A stretch of 64,000 nucleotides of DNA from Gymnopilus junonius. Taxonomy: Eukaryota > Basidiomycota > Agaricomycetes > Agaricales > Galerinaceae. A model generated the notes under the pieces. The model was not told the origin of the DNA. It ran no database searches and saw only the letters and a program-made list of their open reading frames with translations. Both the position numbers and the translations under genes were made by a program. Within the stretch, counting starts at the first letter, position 1. Each line of letters opens with the position of its first letter. Shown piece after piece: positions 52,168 to 60,797 of the stretch. The stretch spans positions 248,001 to 312,000 of the forward strand of contig JADNYJ010000017.1 in assembly GCA_015501075.1 (NCBI GenBank). Reading direction: 5' to 3'.

Positions 52168-54304
52168 CTACATGTACTGCGGTCGAAGCGCAACGCACTG
52201 CTCTCCTCTAATCCGCACATCATCAACAATCCCTGCTTCAACAGCGAGGCTGATGTATGTCTTGAATTTCGAACACTGGGCTTGCTTGTACACGGACGGA
52301 AACTTTTGCACGAGCACCGAACCCAACTGGGTCCTGCCCACACCCTGGGCACGTTCATCGCGCTGTTCTTGCCGGAGAACTGACACTAGAGGGCGGAACT
52401 TGATTGGAACGGAAGAGAGCGGGATGCTAGTCCTGGTAAGAGGCGCTGGTGGTGGTGTGGCTGGGGCGGGCGTTTTTGATGGTACATTCTTGGTGGTAGG
52501 CTTGAACGGCTGTGATGGTCCGGCTTTGGACGCGGGCGCCTCAGGAGTCCAAGGGCGCATTGGAGTCGACGCTCTCGAAGCTGGCGAGCTCTTGAGTAAA
52601 CTTGGAGCTGCGGAAGTTTGGGGTGGCGTTATCGCCACATAGTTCGCAACGGGCGTGGAGTTACTGGAAGCAGGGGCAGAGCGAGGTGGAGGAAGAGGCG
52701 ACGCGGTGCGCGCAGGAGATGGCGCTGATGCGATCGCCCTTTCGGGTTCTTTCTCAGATAGCTCTCTGACTGACTCGGATACAGAGGACGGCAGAGGTTC
52801 AGTTTGAGACGCGGTGCTCCTGAACAAATCATTGAAATACTCTTCGCCTTTTTCGGGAACATTGGTCTTGGTCTCATTCTCCTCATAAGGTTTGGCCGTG
52901 ATATCACTCTTTGTATCCGCAGTTTGGGCTGATGTCGGCGCGGTGGATGGCTCGACATGATTGATCAGGCTAAAATCCGAATGGTTGGAGGAAGGCGAAG
53001 ACGAGGATGAGGCGCTAGACGAAAGAGACTTTTTGGCCGAAAAAGGTGGCGATGCGGGCGCTTCAGGTTTTACCGACTCAGTGTCGCTCCCAAAAATCGG
53101 CCTAGAGGCCGGAATGGCGGTTGGCGATTCCAACGTTTCTTCTGGCAAAACATCATTTGGGACGAAGTGCCCGAATGGTTGTAAATCCTTCTGCTTTCCT
53201 TTCCACGTTGAAGACGAGATACCACCAGTCCCAGAAAAGGGTTCGGCAGATGGCTCGAATGAAGGGATGGGTGGCGTGGCCAAATTATCATAGCGAATAT
53301 TTGGGGGAGCTGAATCAGCCCTAAATTGCTCGCCAGCGCGGGATCGAGGGCGCGAAAAAAGGGGCCCTTCACCCAGTGGACCTAAATGACCTCTGTTGGG
53401 CTTTGGCATTGTGAATCCATTGCCAAGTTCGCTAAATACATTGAACATTTGAGGTTCGAAAGACCCTGAGAAAACAGAGTTCCTGCGAACCCGAGAAGGT
53501 CGAGTGGGGTATGTGGGTGGAGGAGGTTCACTTGAACGATTGTCCTGAGAATAATCCGGGTCGCTCAGCTCTGGCTTTCGAAAGCTCGGCGCGTGCTGGG
53601 TCCCATGACCGTTATTGAAAGCTGGTTCTCTAGGCAGACCCGAGGAAGGAAACGGCTCCTTAGGTCCTGAAGGGCGATCGAGGAAACCGTCGTCGTCAAC
53701 TATCCCTCCGCGAATACCCAAAACAACCCTAGTCCAATCCAACTCGGCTGACGCCTGAGCGACAAGGCTGGTGTGTACGGTTGAAGGGCAGATCAGAACA
53801 ACTTTATAGTTCCGAGTTCGTAGGAGAGAAATAGGGTAAGCTAGGTCCCTGTCTGCCGTGATTACGACAAATGTATGAGGTGGTGCATGGTCCCATGCGT
53901 GAATAAGGATGTCGGCTTGCAATTTAAATGCGTTAGTATTGCGTTCGAATGGCTGGAAATTTATGAAAGCTTACGAGCATGATTTTCGCATGGACATCCT
54001 TCCTTCCCTCAGATGGACAGTCTACCAATGTTATACCTGATGCCGATAACTCGGCGCGTACATTAGTCTCACGAGGCGAGAGCTGGGCGAAATCCGTGTA
54101 AGCTCTGAACGCCTTAATAGAACCAAAAGGAGTAATCGCCGTTCTCATATTCTTCACCAGTTCATACGTAGAAACGGATGAACTGGCACTTGTCAAACCA
54201 GTAGTTTCTGGAGCAGATATTAGTGAATAGGATGGTATATTCTAGTGGCATGTGTGCTTACCATAATCCCAAAATACGATTATATCTTCCTTTTCAACGG
54301 TCAT
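52168..54304 (-). CDS. NYN-domain protein with C-terminal LOTUS/OST-HTH domain (MARF1-like)
   Basis: Predicted RNA-binding ribonuclease-type regulator. The ATG at 54304 gives MTVEKEDIIVFWDYE, then SVSTYELVKNMRTAITPFGS, VDCPSEGRKDVHAKIML, and WDHAPPHTFVVITADRDLAY followed by RNYKVVLICPS. These are the NYN (PIN-like) landmarks, with Asp at FWDYE, GRKDV and ADRDLAY. A 400-residue disordered Ser/Pro linker leads to a C-terminal LOTUS-type domain (IKFRPLVSVLRQEQRDE, VGRTQLGSVLVQKFPSVYKQ, CSKFKTYISLAVEAGIV), stop at 52168-52170. The intron at 53917-53975 has typical size and CTAAC branch point, but gives a one-base mismatch at KIML/ADI. A GG in place of G would fix it; the alternative is a 22-nt intron adding 14 residues. 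Confidence 0.85.
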
Positions 54305-55697
54305 GAGCAGTTAGAAGGATTCTGGAAGAAAGGGCCACCAAGCACGATCCTCTTCTTTATAAACACGGCCTGAGCGTATGTTAGTGTCTCTTGCAGAACG
54401 TCCTGCAACCATGAGGCCGGTTCAACGAACTTTTCCCATGCTGGGACACGTGTGTGCGTTACAGTAGTTAAGTACTTATGTCAGGGCCAGGCAGAAGTAA
54501 GTGGTTTGTGGAAGGGACCCATGGGGACAATCGAAGGGGTAGGCGATCAGTTGGACATCAGGAGAGCTGAGGACATGCATAAATTTTGATGGATGAATTT
54601 TACACAAGTGAAAACCTCACGCACGCACCTGAGAAAGGCATCTCCGCAACATATTGGTTAGGAAAAGGCGTGCTTCGTTGATCGATAGCCGGTTCGAAAG
54701 GAAAACACCTGTTGAGGACCCACGAAGTGGCTTTGAAGTTTGACGCACTTCTGCCAGTCCGACTCTTTACAGACGAAATTCCTCACCAACGTTAAAACTG
54801 GGATGCTGATTAGTTACACCAGACTACAGCTCTGTGCCGAAAGGACCTGGCCATGTAGGTAATGAGAAAAATACAAGCATGTATATGTATGGGGCCCGGT
54901 GTGGCACTCATGATCAGGCTCCAAAATAACTGGCAGAACTGAAACAGATTTTGCCAATGTTGCAGGGTTGTGTTGGCTACGGAGAGTGAGCATAAAATCC
55001 ATGTTCAATTAGCTGGCATGAAATACCGTTTCATCAAGGAACAAGCAGCTGAAGTAGTAAAAACCAAACCATAGGGAAAAAAACGAGCCACATAACGGTT
55101 GCCAGAGTGTCCAACGAAAATTAGACGAAGTCATGTAAGGCCATGGCTTATGCTAGAGTGCTCTAACATGTCTGAAATCTGCCAAGTGTGGGGGCGAAGC
55201 AAAAGAAAATGGCGGTCGACGTCGAAGGAGGAATTTGAATCAACAGGAAACGCGTTTGCCGAACAAAAGGCGTTCATCACGTGATTCTAAGTAGTGTGCG
55301 TCGCGTAAACGCGTTCCTGTAAAGGACCAAAGGAGTACCTAATTGAGAATGAAGCAATTTTATTTGTGTTCATACACTTATGGGAAAGGTTGTCGAAATT
55401 TATAATTTAAATTGAGTGGTCATGAACGAACAGTAAATTTTCTCGTTATCGCATAAAAAAAATTCAATCTCTCCGAAAGAAGGTCGAAAGTAATAATAAT
55501 AATATCAGAATGCATGTAGCCAGATCCATCACGTTATACTCATCGCAAGCATTGTCTTGAAGAGGTAGCAATGGTGAGATGATGGTAACTGTAGCAAGAT
55601 ATGTCCATCAGCAAGGCGTCAAATGCTGGAACGTGGACAGAAAATTATACGCACCAATGAACAGATAATCAAGCTGGACATGAAGTCGAAAGGGCAC
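54305..55697. other. Intergenic, no gene seen
   Basis: 1.4 kb between the NYN gene and the pheromone precursor. Checked on both strands for further CaaX-ending short ORFs; none found. Small open frames are not family-like. Confidence 0.35.
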
Positions 55698-55865
55698 TCA
55701 GGCGACGACGCAATAAGCATTTCCGCCACTTCCACCAGTTTCTTCATTGGTTGGAACGGACTCTGTACGGGAAACGACACAGTAGGCATTGCCACCGCTA
55801 CCGCCAGTGTCCTGGGTAGTGGGGAGGTCAGTGGTTGGAACAGAGACGGTGGTGAAGGAATCCAT
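55698..55865 (-). CDS. Lipopeptide mating-pheromone precursor with two pheromone copies
   Basis: 55-residue ORF, start ATG at 55865 (MDSFTTVSVPTTDLPTTQDT), good context (gcaaATGG). It contains two copies of TGGSGGNAYCVV: the first followed by SRTESVPTNEE, the second ending in A and the stop, so the C-terminus is CVVA, a CaaX box for farnesylation. The opening MDSFTT, the acidic QDT/NEET just before each copy (likely cleavage region), the Gly-rich linker and the CaaX end are hallmarks of basidiomycete B-type pheromone precursors. The internal copy ends CVVS. A longer upstream open frame (to 55991) exists, but the M at 55865 is the normal start. No STE3-type receptor gene is visible in the window. 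Confidence 0.82.
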   Translation of the reverse strand: MDSFTTVSVPTTDLPTTQDTGGSGGNAYCVVSRTESVPTNEETGGSGGNAYCVVA

Positions 55866-57404
55866 TTGCTCGATGTTCGTTAGTTGCGCTTGGTGGGATT
55901 TTTCAAACGCGACTGAAGGATAATTAACGTCGGGAATTCGCCTCACTTTATACTTTTTTCTCCTCCATACCAGACTGCTGCTTTCACGCAAGCGAGTCGA
56001 CTATGGAATCGACTTTTCGAATTTGTCTCCGTGCTCCGCGCTCCGAGGACATTGTACCATTGTCCAGCCGAATTGATTGGTAATTCTTTTTGGCGATCGA
56101 AATTGAAAAGGTCATACATAGCCTGATTTGGGACCTTGCCGGTTACCTTCCCCCCCTGTGGCGCTTGATTAGGTGGGCCGCCCGAGTCGATTGGCTCCTG
56201 CCCACAATAGAAGGGGGAACAATAAGCACAATAGGTTTCAACAACAATTATGTGATTAAACAAAAAAAAAATCGGGGCAGACTGGAATGAGCAAGGGCCT
56301 GGCACGATCATTGTTCAAAGCGTATGTAAGTCACGGAACGTGTACAGACGGCTGACGCCCAAAAAATGACCTCTGGAAAAATTTGTCTTCCTAAAAGGCA
56401 CAGAGGCGCCTTTATCTGTTGATCATGAGCTCTAGGTGCCTGTCGACCAAGGGACTCGGAGAAGAAGTTGAATTCAACGGTACTAATCTTAGTCAAGACC
56501 TCAGTAAAAACCCCCCTGTTAGTGGGATAGTAACAAGTGTAAGCATAGAGAAGACGAATAAGCATGGGCGAATCGTGGAGTTGTGCAGTGTGGAAGACAC
56601 TTGAAAAAAATTTGATGCAATGGAGAGTGAGTGATGGTTCCAAAAGGGGCCATGAGCTGCGAGAACAAATAAAGGCAGACAAGGCGGAACAGGCCGGCCG
56701 CGATCGCTGCTATGCTTGCGCTTGACTTGCTCATCCACAGTTCAACTCCAAAACGCGTTTGAAGCTATTGACTCAGATTGAAATGCCCTGCCAGGATGTC
56801 GATGCTATAATTCCATTCCATTCTGAGACCAAAGACTAGATTCCCAGGTACGCTCACTGCTCAGACGCCTTACACGCTTACAACCTGCAATATGCTGACG
56901 TGATTCGACGCTTCATCGAACTTGCCATTGGATAGTCTTCTCTGAGCCACCACGGGGAAATTTGTAGTGTCCAGGTGCTCTCAATTCGACGTGTCTGCTG
57001 CTCTTGTGCTTGGCTGGTCAAATCCGGAAACACATGGCCCGGGCGGTCCTACAACGCCCTACCAGTCTCAAATACTGTGAAAGCATTATCCAACCATGCG
57101 TTTCGTGGGCGTAGAGAGCTGCGGAAGGTACGTACGTAAATGCATTATATTTTTATTTCCTTTCAAATGCATTCAAAAGGGGACGGTGGTGGTCTCTTTC
57201 CACTCATGATCCATTTCTTGGCACATGAACATCGAAATGGGGATAGTCGAGAGGCAATTCGTCACTGGCGTCAGTAATTCAATGTGAAGAAGAGATGGCG
57301 TACTTCCCAGTTGGACGTCGCCTGCGGGTCATGTGGCGCATACTCGAACTTCTCTCGCTAAAGAACATTATAAAATACTGTATGCGTATTCACTCGACAA
57401 CAAG
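55866..57404. other. Intergenic, no further gene supported
   Basis: 1.5 kb between the pheromone precursor and the epimerase. Several open frames on the minus strand (55943-56311, 56308-56682) have no recognisable content. A G-run and A-run near 56150-56270 are the only compositional features. Confidence 0.35.
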
Positions 57405-60020: not shown

Positions 60021-60797
60021 ATGTCGTCAGCCGCCCCGCTCCAAGGCAAAACTGCCATTATCACCGGCGGCAGCAAAGGCATAGGTGCCGCCACCACGAA
60101 GCACCTTGCCGCCCTTGGCGCCAACGTTGTTTTCACGTACTCCAGCGATTCAGCTACCGCCGAAGCTCTCGCGAAGAAATTAAACTCTGAGTTCCCTTCC
60201 CTTCCTGATGAACAACCCCGCGCGCTTGGCGTTAAAAGCGATTCGACTTCGATGATCGACCTCAAATCTCTGGTAGCTAAAACGCTGGAGACGTATTCCC
60301 ACATTGACATCCTCATCCTCAATGCCGCCATCTTGCCCATGCAAGACCTCGCCAACGCCACAGAAGCTACCTTCGAGGCCGCTATGAATACCAACGTCAA
60401 AGGACCCCTATTCCTGACCCAACTTGTCGCTCCTCATCTCGCTCCAGGATCACACGTTGTCTTCATTTCCACGTCTCTTACCATCGCGAGCACTGTCACG
60501 CCCAACTATCTCATATATGCCGCTACGAAAGGCGCTGTTGAGCAGATGATCAGGGTCCTCAGCAAGGATTTGGCAAAGAGGGGGATTTGTGTAAACGGAG
60601 TCGGGCCTGGACCTACGGGTACTGAGATGTTTTACAAGGACAAGAGCGACGCAGTTCTGAACGCTATCAAGCAATTGATTCCAATGGGGCGGGTCGGTAC
60701 GCCGGAGGAAGTAGCGGAGGTCATTGGCTGGTTATCTGGGGATGGTAGTCGCTGGGTTTCGGGCCAGGTAATAAGGGCGAATGGCGCAATGGCGTAA
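60021..60797 (+). CDS. Short-chain dehydrogenase/reductase (classical SDR)
   Basis: Single-exon gene of 258 residues starting MSSAAPLQGKTAIITGGSKG. NAD(P)-binding glycine motif TGGSKGIG; NAA (LILNAA); catalytic Ser in VVFISTSLTIAS; the YxxxK pair in YAATK; and the conserved PGPTGTEMF after the active site. Ends VSGQVIRANGAMA, the usual 3-ketoacyl-reductase-like C-terminus. After the glycine motif YSSDSATAEAL suggests NADP preference. Oxidises or reduces an alcohol/ketone; the substrate is unknown. Like the Nudix gene it lacks introns. Confidence 0.92.
   Translation: MSSAAPLQGKTAIITGGSKGIGAATTKHLAALGANVVFTYSSDSATAEALAKKLNSEFPSLPDEQPRALGVKSDSTSMIDLKSLVAKTLETYSHIDILILNAAILPMQDLANATEATFEAAMNTNVKGPLFLTQLVAPHLAPGSHVVFISTSLTIASTVTPNYLIYAATKGAVEQMIRVLSKDLAKRGICVNGVGPGPTGTEMFYKDKSDAVLNAIKQLIPMGRVGTPEEVAEVIGWLSGDGSRWVSGQVIRANGAMA

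What the first reader, a model, noticed from the sequence alone, without database searches (positions are those of the whole stretch)
55698..55865. Two-copy basidiomycete pheromone precursor with CaaX end, not next to a visible receptor
The 55-residue minus-strand ORF carries TGGSGGNAYCVV twice, the second ending CVVA before the stop. The first copy ends CVVS, itself CaaX-like. Each copy follows an acidic spacer (QDT, NEET). Family know-how: farnesylated basidiomycete pheromones have this opening (MDSFTT), Gly-rich linker and CaaX box. A duplicated pheromone in one precursor could release two peptides, or one peptide plus an internal relic. No STE3-type 7TM receptor gene was recognised within 64 kb, so this may be a pheromone gene outside the classical B mating-type locus.
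Basis: partly seen in the sequence, partly recalled or inferred. Interest (0 to 1): 0.88.

Follow-up and report, generated by a model that had tools for sequence, protein, structure and literature searches.

The report
Two-copy non-mating pheromone precursor gene
A mushroom (apparently Gymnopilus junonius) carries, away from its mating-type genes, a tiny gene whose product holds the same lipid-modifiable signal peptide twice; similar two-copy genes occur in other mushrooms, which suggests that one precursor makes two molecules of a fungal signal whose receptor is unknown.

Summary
In detail: the minus-strand ORF 55865-55698 carries TGGSGGNAYCVV twice, ending CVVS-R and CVVA-stop. The two copies differ at 9 of 36 bases, all silent, so selection has long kept both peptides the same. 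The genome is most likely Gymnopilus junonius (contig-length match). No STE3 receptor match lies on this contig. Six single-copy pheromone-like loci were found outside the B loci, three with the identical TGGSGGNAYCVVA end. [quoted passage not shown] Its two-copy layout is widespread: 95 of 135 proteins examined (a retrieval biased towards it), 12 other named species among them. In 41 of 42 non-redundant ones the internal copy keeps C-V-[V/I]-[A/F/S/T], and basic residues just behind it are eight- to tenfold enriched; Kex2-type dibasic sites are rare. Best reading: a rhodotorucine-like precursor, cut behind the internal CaaX-like box so that both copies become the same farnesylated peptide. 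Expression, processing and receptor are untested. Ten literature searches (open-licence papers only) showed no description of this class. New variant of a known kind.

The parts
55698..55865 (-). CDS, 55 aa, two-cargo pheromone-like precursor (stop TGA 55698-55700)
   Evidence: relatives; silent-only divergence of the copies
55773..55808 (-). copy 1, TGGSGGNAYCVV (residues 20-31)
55770..55781 (-). internal CaaX-like box CVVS (residues 29-32), followed by Arg33 (55767-55769)
   Evidence: conserved as C-V-[V/I]-[A/F/S/T] in 41 of 42 non-redundant relatives; basic residues enriched behind it
55704..55739 (-). copy 2, TGGSGGNAYCVV (residues 43-54)
55701..55712 (-). terminal CaaX box CVVA (residues 52-55)
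55809..55814 (-). QD before copy 1: presumed N-terminal cut site
   Evidence: an acidic residue in this place in 41 of 42 relatives; use as a cut site is inferred
55740..55745 (-). EE before copy 2: presumed N-terminal cut site
   Evidence: an acidic residue in this place in 42 of 42 relatives; EE is among the charged pairs named in PMC8305134
55947..55952 (-). TATAAA, 87 bases upstream of the ATG
   Evidence: TATAWR at -180 to -50 in 6 of 7 family genes, 12% of random windows
55589..55654 (-). predicted 66-base intron in the 3' UTR (GTGCGT...CTGAT...CTACAG)
   Evidence: similar pattern in 5 of 7 family genes, 2.3% of random positions; no transcript evidence

Best explanation
It is a gene for a non-mating-type, farnesyl-type pheromone-like precursor with two cargo units. 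Shown by sequence: two complete units (acidic stretch, Gly-rich peptide, Tyr-Cys, CaaX-like box), the second ending at the stop, both kept at the same peptide by selection. Inferred: the precursor is cut behind the internal CVVS, at or near the following Arg, which exposes a second CaaX end; both Cys are farnesylated, -VVS and -VVA removed and the Cys methylated; each unit is cut at its acidic site (QD|T, EE|T). This gives two molecules of one lipopeptide, about TGGSGGNAYC farnesyl methyl ester, exported and sensed by a STE3-like receptor that does not differ between mating types. Doubling would raise the dose; three other loci in this genome encode the same end once each.
For: Silent-only divergence of the copies (9 of 9 differences). 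Two-copy relatives in 12 other named species among 95 two-copy proteins of 135, 13 with the fused Lyophyllum atratum model. In 42 non-redundant relatives the internal box is V at a1 in 42, V/I at a2 in 41, A/F/S/T at X in 42, and acidic residues precede the two units in 41 and 42. K/R/H fill 34 of 126 positions X+1 to X+3 against 11 of 410 in the rest of the spacer and 31 of 943 in the leader. The cores of the two copies agree within a precursor more than between lineages. P0057 and P0062, single-copy, end in CVVS at the C-terminus. Precedent: the rhodotorucine A precursor, tandem pheromones with CAAX-like spacers, yields several peptides (PMC3068285, passage). Haplotype-conserved receptor pairs exist; Prenyltrans- and ICMT-family genes are present.
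Against: No transcript, peptide or receptor data. Pfam score below cut-off. The internal pair QD is not among the charged pairs named in PMC8305134. 9 of 42 relatives have no basic residue at X+1 to X+3 (8 of these have Gln at X+1). The Phe class (CVVF-A-K/R) has a less typical box. A few relatives have a broken copy (P0036, P0043, P0070, P0077). At the coarsest clustering (4 clusters) the copy-agreement test is weak (median p 0.044, largest 0.14). All six other loci found in this genome are single-copy.
Confidence: 0.6

Rival explanations
1. Only the terminal copy matures. The internal copy is a duplicated leader or spacer that is discarded, a relic of a unit duplication.
For: A CaaX box in mid-protein cannot be farnesylated as it stands (established knowledge), no cutting enzyme is known, and some relatives carry a broken internal copy, e.g. 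P0077 with Cys to Ser.
Against: Nine silent and no replacement differences between the copies; the internal box and the basic residue behind it are conserved; the internal copy follows the lineage-specific core.
Confidence: 0.24
2. The two copies stay on one chain and act as one two-headed ligand, farnesylated only at the C-terminus, for example for a receptor dimer.
For: Spacing between the two Cys is narrow, 23-27 residues in 39 of 42, and no relative with three or more copies in one precursor was seen.
Against: It does not explain the conserved V-[V/I]-[A/F/S/T] behind the internal Cys nor the acidic site before the terminal copy.
Confidence: 0.07
3. It is a mating pheromone gene of the B system that has moved away from its receptor and still acts in mating-type recognition.
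For: Same general precursor type (MD-F start, acidic site, CaaX).
Against: B-haplotype precursors have WFC, GFC or GYC cores; the peptide is the same at unlinked loci, and allelic contigs carry the same core in 4 of 4 pairs, unlike mating-type alleles; no receptor match on C79.
Confidence: 0.06
4. Chance or dead ORF.
For: No transcript data; none of the three protein searches listed an entry identical to it.
Against: Silent-only divergence, two-copy orthologue in G. dilepis, TATA box and 3'-UTR intron pattern shared with paralogues.
Confidence: 0.03

Closest known systems
[quoted passage not shown] cinerea consensus GGGSGNGAYC, L. bicolor GGGSGNNAYC, four A. bisporus genes; PMC8305134, passages; also P. 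cinnabarinus, PMC4101180, passages)
   Same: MDS/AF start, charged site, Gly-rich peptide ending in Tyr-Cys, CaaX end, not tied to a receptor gene; intron in the 3' UTR (seen in A. bisporus transcripts, predicted here)
   Different: Those passages mention no second unit; here two complete units stand in one precursor with an internal CaaX-like box
Rhodotorucine A (RHA) precursors of red yeasts (PMC3068285 and PMC3236058, passages; the original paper not held)
   Same: Tandem farnesyl-peptide units separated by CAAX-like spacers, giving several peptides; only silent changes between species' RHA2.A1 genes reported
   Different: Those are mating-type-specific factors of another class of fungi; here non-mating, exactly two units, other peptide; homology not tested
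MFA1 of cereal rusts, and Microbotryum precursors (PMC10977897, passages)
   Same: Repeated predicted peptides in one CaaX precursor
   Different: On the chromosome of, and assigned to, the mating receptor STE3.2-3; repeats differ in sequence
HPP1 hybrid precursor of Trichoderma reesei (PMC3068285, passages)
   Same: Repeated Cys motif that makes a CAAX end at the C-terminus
   Different: Three copies with Kex2 sites; male-fertility factor of an ascomycete
Kex2-processed repeat proteins (PMC7329392, passages)
   Same: Several peptide cores in one precursor
   Different: No dibasic site in the window gene; 2 of 95 two-copy relatives have one between the copies

Membership tests
[quoted passage not shown]
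   MDSF, 55 aa
[quoted passage not shown]
   CVVA then stop
[quoted passage not shown]
   EE before copy 2; copy 1 has QD, which is not on the published list
[quoted passage not shown]
   TGGSGGNAYC
[quoted passage not shown]
   No STE3 match on C79
[quoted passage not shown]
   Intron predicted only; no RNA data
Pfam PF08015 (fungal mating-type pheromone) | Score at or above the curated cut-off of 22 bits | tested here: not met
   19.7 bits, E 0.0018; several two-copy relatives do carry PF08015
B mating-type pheromone genes | Next to a polymorphic STE3 receptor | tested here: not met
Rhodotorucine-type tandem precursors | Tandem identical peptides separated by CAAX-like spacers | tested here: met
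   Two copies, CVVS between
Rhodotorucine-type tandem precursors | Mating-type-specific locus | tested here: not met
   Not linked to a receptor match
Rhodotorucine-type tandem precursors | Several mature farnesyl peptides released | not testable with these tools
   Needs peptide chemistry
Kex2-processed repeat proteins | Dibasic Kex2 sites between cores | tested here: not met
   None in the gene; 2 of 95 relatives

The most novel reading that the evidence does not exclude
Mushrooms have a widespread, so far undescribed class of two-cargo, non-mating farnesyl-peptide precursors. Their internal CaaX box is made usable by a dedicated cut that is not Kex2's, beside a basic residue or Gln, before farnesylation, and the released peptide is the missing ligand of the conserved non-mating STE3 receptors.
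Probability: 0.33. Interest if true: 0.75.

Novelty: new variant of a known kind. Interest (0 to 1): 0.56.

Why it matters
[quoted passage not shown] see also PMC8161036, passages). A peptide that is the same at unlinked genes and on both haplotypes, and that is encoded twice per precursor here, is a concrete candidate ligand that can be synthesised and tested. The internal CaaX box also poses a direct question: which protease exposes a CaaX motif in the middle of a protein before farnesylation? The enzymes that mature rhodotorucine A were reported as unknown (PMC3068285, 2010, passage).

Tried and rejected
Larger gene model in the upstream frame: no in-frame ATG there, and homology starts at MDSF. 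The longer models P0002, P0081 and P0125 have N-terminal parts that look unrelated to each other (by eye). Pfam GTP1_OBG match (E 0.014): below its cut-off; taken as a glycine-rich chance match. Antisense ORF 55623-55883 (+, 86 aa): not pursued.

Precursors with three or more copies: a search of longer proteins (candidates scaled to a 162-aa query; 23 hits) gave none. P0074, with four units, looks like two two-copy genes fused in one model (it holds a second MDSF start); the third pattern match in P0026 lies in its N-terminal extension. Trp directly after the last CaaX in P0079, P0093, P0102, P0108 and P0136-P0140 is probably a TGA stop read as Trp by the source's gene caller (inference; DNA not seen).

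Recent gene conversion as the reason for identical copies: disfavoured in this gene (9 of 12 third positions differ); not testable for the other proteins, whose DNA I did not have. Splicing inside the CDS that would remove one copy: looked at by eye only, no in-frame pair seen.

Literature: ten searches. Neither the listings nor the passages I read (ten papers) describe a two-copy Agaricomycete precursor. The library holds open-licence papers only, no supplementary file was read, and several listed papers were not opened, so it may be in print.

Full report
What is there. The two 12-residue copies start 23 codons apart. Their codons differ at 9 of 36 bases, all third positions. If nine random changes were made in copy 1, the chance that all would be silent is 3.2e-7 (exact count; a simulation had 1 in 200,000). 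So the region has been translated and selection has kept both copies the same. Recent copying of one onto the other is unlikely, because 9 of 12 third positions differ.

Where it is. The window is G000:C79:248001-312000 of a 58-Mb genome in 898 contigs. A Gymnopilus junonius protein (P0125, from a contig of 147,228 bases) ends in the same 37 residues as the open frame on contig C897, whose length is also 147,228; the genome is therefore taken as G. junonius (Agaricales). Several loci come in near-identical pairs of contigs, so both haplotypes seem partly present. None of the three protein searches listed an entry identical to the window protein, so the public gene set may lack it.

Receptors and mating loci. 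STE3 gives 35 exon matches, on C314, C712, C590 and C850, none on C79. C314 and C712 look like the two B haplotypes. Between them receptor pair A is 94% and pair D 94% identical in protein, pairs B and C 76% and 73%; a fifth receptor, E, was matched on C712 only; the unlinked C590/C850 pair is 95% identical (crude, from joined exon matches, the C850 copy partial). Pairs A, D and C590/C850 are candidates for receptors without mating-type role, though D may be a mating receptor for which both haplotypes carry the same allele. The short CaaX ORFs in the B regions read (C314 4,820-20,569 and C712 68,835-86,368, gaps of 25 and 238 bases; ORFs starting MD only) end in WFC, GFC or GYC. A whole-genome pattern for GGNAYCV found seven places, none on C314 or C712; the reversed control pattern found none.

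The family in this genome. Searching with the window protein gave 11 places. Reading their frames gives, besides the window gene, C6/C282 (two genes each, about 2 kb apart), C897, C57/C614, C36/C423 and C734: six loci when allelic contigs are counted once, all single-copy, three of them ending in TGGSGGNAYCVVA. Between allelic contigs the cores are identical in 4 of 4 pairs. Five of seven family genes have an intron-like pattern starting 36-76 bases after the stop (2.3% of random positions in the window); with a stricter pattern it is 3 of 7 (0.8%). Six of seven have TATAWR 180 to 50 bases upstream of the ATG (12% of random windows). The patterns were written after looking at the sequences. 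C897 and C36 miss the intron pattern, C734 misses the TATA pattern.

Relatives elsewhere. Searches listed 134 proteins (P0002-P0135; one search had 139 hits, 120 shown). With the window protein that is 135; 95 have exactly two Tyr-Cys-aliphatic units by a simple pattern, 38 one, and two (P0026, P0074) more than two for the reasons given under Tried and rejected. The share is biased, since the query and the profile were two-copy. Of the 38, four look like two-copy genes with a damaged copy (P0036, P0043, P0070, P0077) and three like truncated models (P0123, P0124, P0127). Named species among the 95, besides the window's: Hebeloma cylindrosporum, Gymnopilus dilepis, Pholiota molesta, Lyophyllum shimeji, Tricholomella constricta, Tricholoma matsutake, Collybia nuda, Coprinopsis marcescibilis, Coprinellus micaceus, Candolleomyces efflorescens, C. 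aberdarensis and Punctularia strigosozonata (12); Lyophyllum atratum (P0074) makes 13. Punctularia is in Corticiales; the others I recall as Agaricales. The names given are 'hypothetical protein', with 'Pheromone' from UniRef for some.

What the comparison says about the internal copy. Of 93 complete two-copy proteins, 42 remain after removing near-duplicates. Behind the internal Cys: Val in 42, then Val/Ile in 41, then Ala (21), Phe (13), Ser (7) or Thr (1). Tyr-Cys and a loose pair of small or aliphatic residues are part of the search pattern, so these are built in; the narrowness to V, V/I and A/F/S/T is not. K, R or H fill 34 of 126 positions X+1 to X+3, against 11 of 410 in the rest of the spacer and 31 of 943 in the leader. 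At least one is there in 33 of 42; of the other nine, eight have Gln at X+1 and one has Ala. Dibasic pairs between the copies occur in 2 of 95. An acidic residue precedes the internal and terminal peptides in 41 and 42 of 42.

The two copies in a precursor resemble each other more than copies from other lineages do. With one representative per cluster, the seven residues before Tyr are 0.71 identical against 0.28 after shuffling partners (9 clusters, largest p 0.002) and 0.78 against 0.30 (25 clusters); at 4 clusters the test has little power (0.53 against 0.25, median p 0.044, largest 0.14). An earlier variant with 8 clusters had 55 of 72 matches against 30.2 expected, reached in 1 of 20,000 shuffles. 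The copies are identical at these positions in 52 of 93. Relatedness of clusters and gene conversion could add to this signal; only in the window gene does DNA argue against conversion.

How it most likely works. The simplest account of an internal unit that keeps its acidic site, its peptide, its CaaX-like box and, mostly, a basic residue behind it is that it is released. Farnesyltransferase acts on a C-terminal CaaX (established knowledge), so a cut behind the box must come first. Both ends would then be farnesylated, trimmed and methylated, and the N-terminal sides cut at the acidic sites, as described for this class (PMC8305134, passages). ICMT- and Prenyltrans-family genes are present (these families also hold other enzymes). 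The cut, its protease, export and receptor are all inferred.

Known and new. [quoted passage not shown] PMC4101180, passages). Tandem farnesyl pheromones with CAAX-like spacers are known as mating factors of red yeasts, and repeats in rusts and Microbotryum (PMC3068285, PMC3236058, PMC10977897; passages). The combination, a non-mating mushroom precursor with two units, was in no listing or passage I saw. I file it as a new variant of a known kind: membership in the non-mating class is well met, while the two-unit layout works like rhodotorucine's without being shown to be related to it.

Noticed in passing
G000, PF04140 (ICMT) matches on 13 contigs, e.g. C419:6707-10252, C244:26216-27458, C12:84902-88168: 20 ICMT-family matches, some clustered and some probably allelic, suggest an expanded isoprenylcysteine methyltransferase-like family in this mushroom.
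   Followed up: no
G000 C6:122734-124877 and C282:17250-19392: Two different pheromone-like genes lie about 2 kb apart on both contigs, one ending GGSGGNAYCVVA, the other GGSGGNCYCIIA.
   Followed up: partly
G000 C36/C423 (L041, L042): A more distant pheromone-like precursor ends GGYAGNCYCVVT; the leaders differ between the two contigs, the core does not.
   Followed up: partly
two-copy proteins of the Phe class, e.g. P0031, P0099, P0120: In 30 of 95 two-copy proteins the internal box is CVVF followed by A/S and then K, R or H; it may be a separate processing class, seen in Psathyrellaceae- and Lyophyllaceae-type names (family names recalled).
   Followed up: partly
P0057 and P0062: Single-copy relatives that end in CVVS at the stop, the same box that is internal in the window gene; possibly two-copy genes that lost the second half.
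   Followed up: no
G000 C590:119935-121044 and C850:59-660: An unlinked STE3-like receptor gene, 95% identical between the two contigs over 168 residues, about 64-67% identical to receptor D of the B region.
   Followed up: partly
window 60021-60797 (+) and 52168-53922 (-): Neighbours: a short-chain dehydrogenase (PF13561, E 1e-49) and an ORF with a sub-threshold NYN-domain match; nothing pheromone-related among the eight ORFs scanned.
   Followed up: partly
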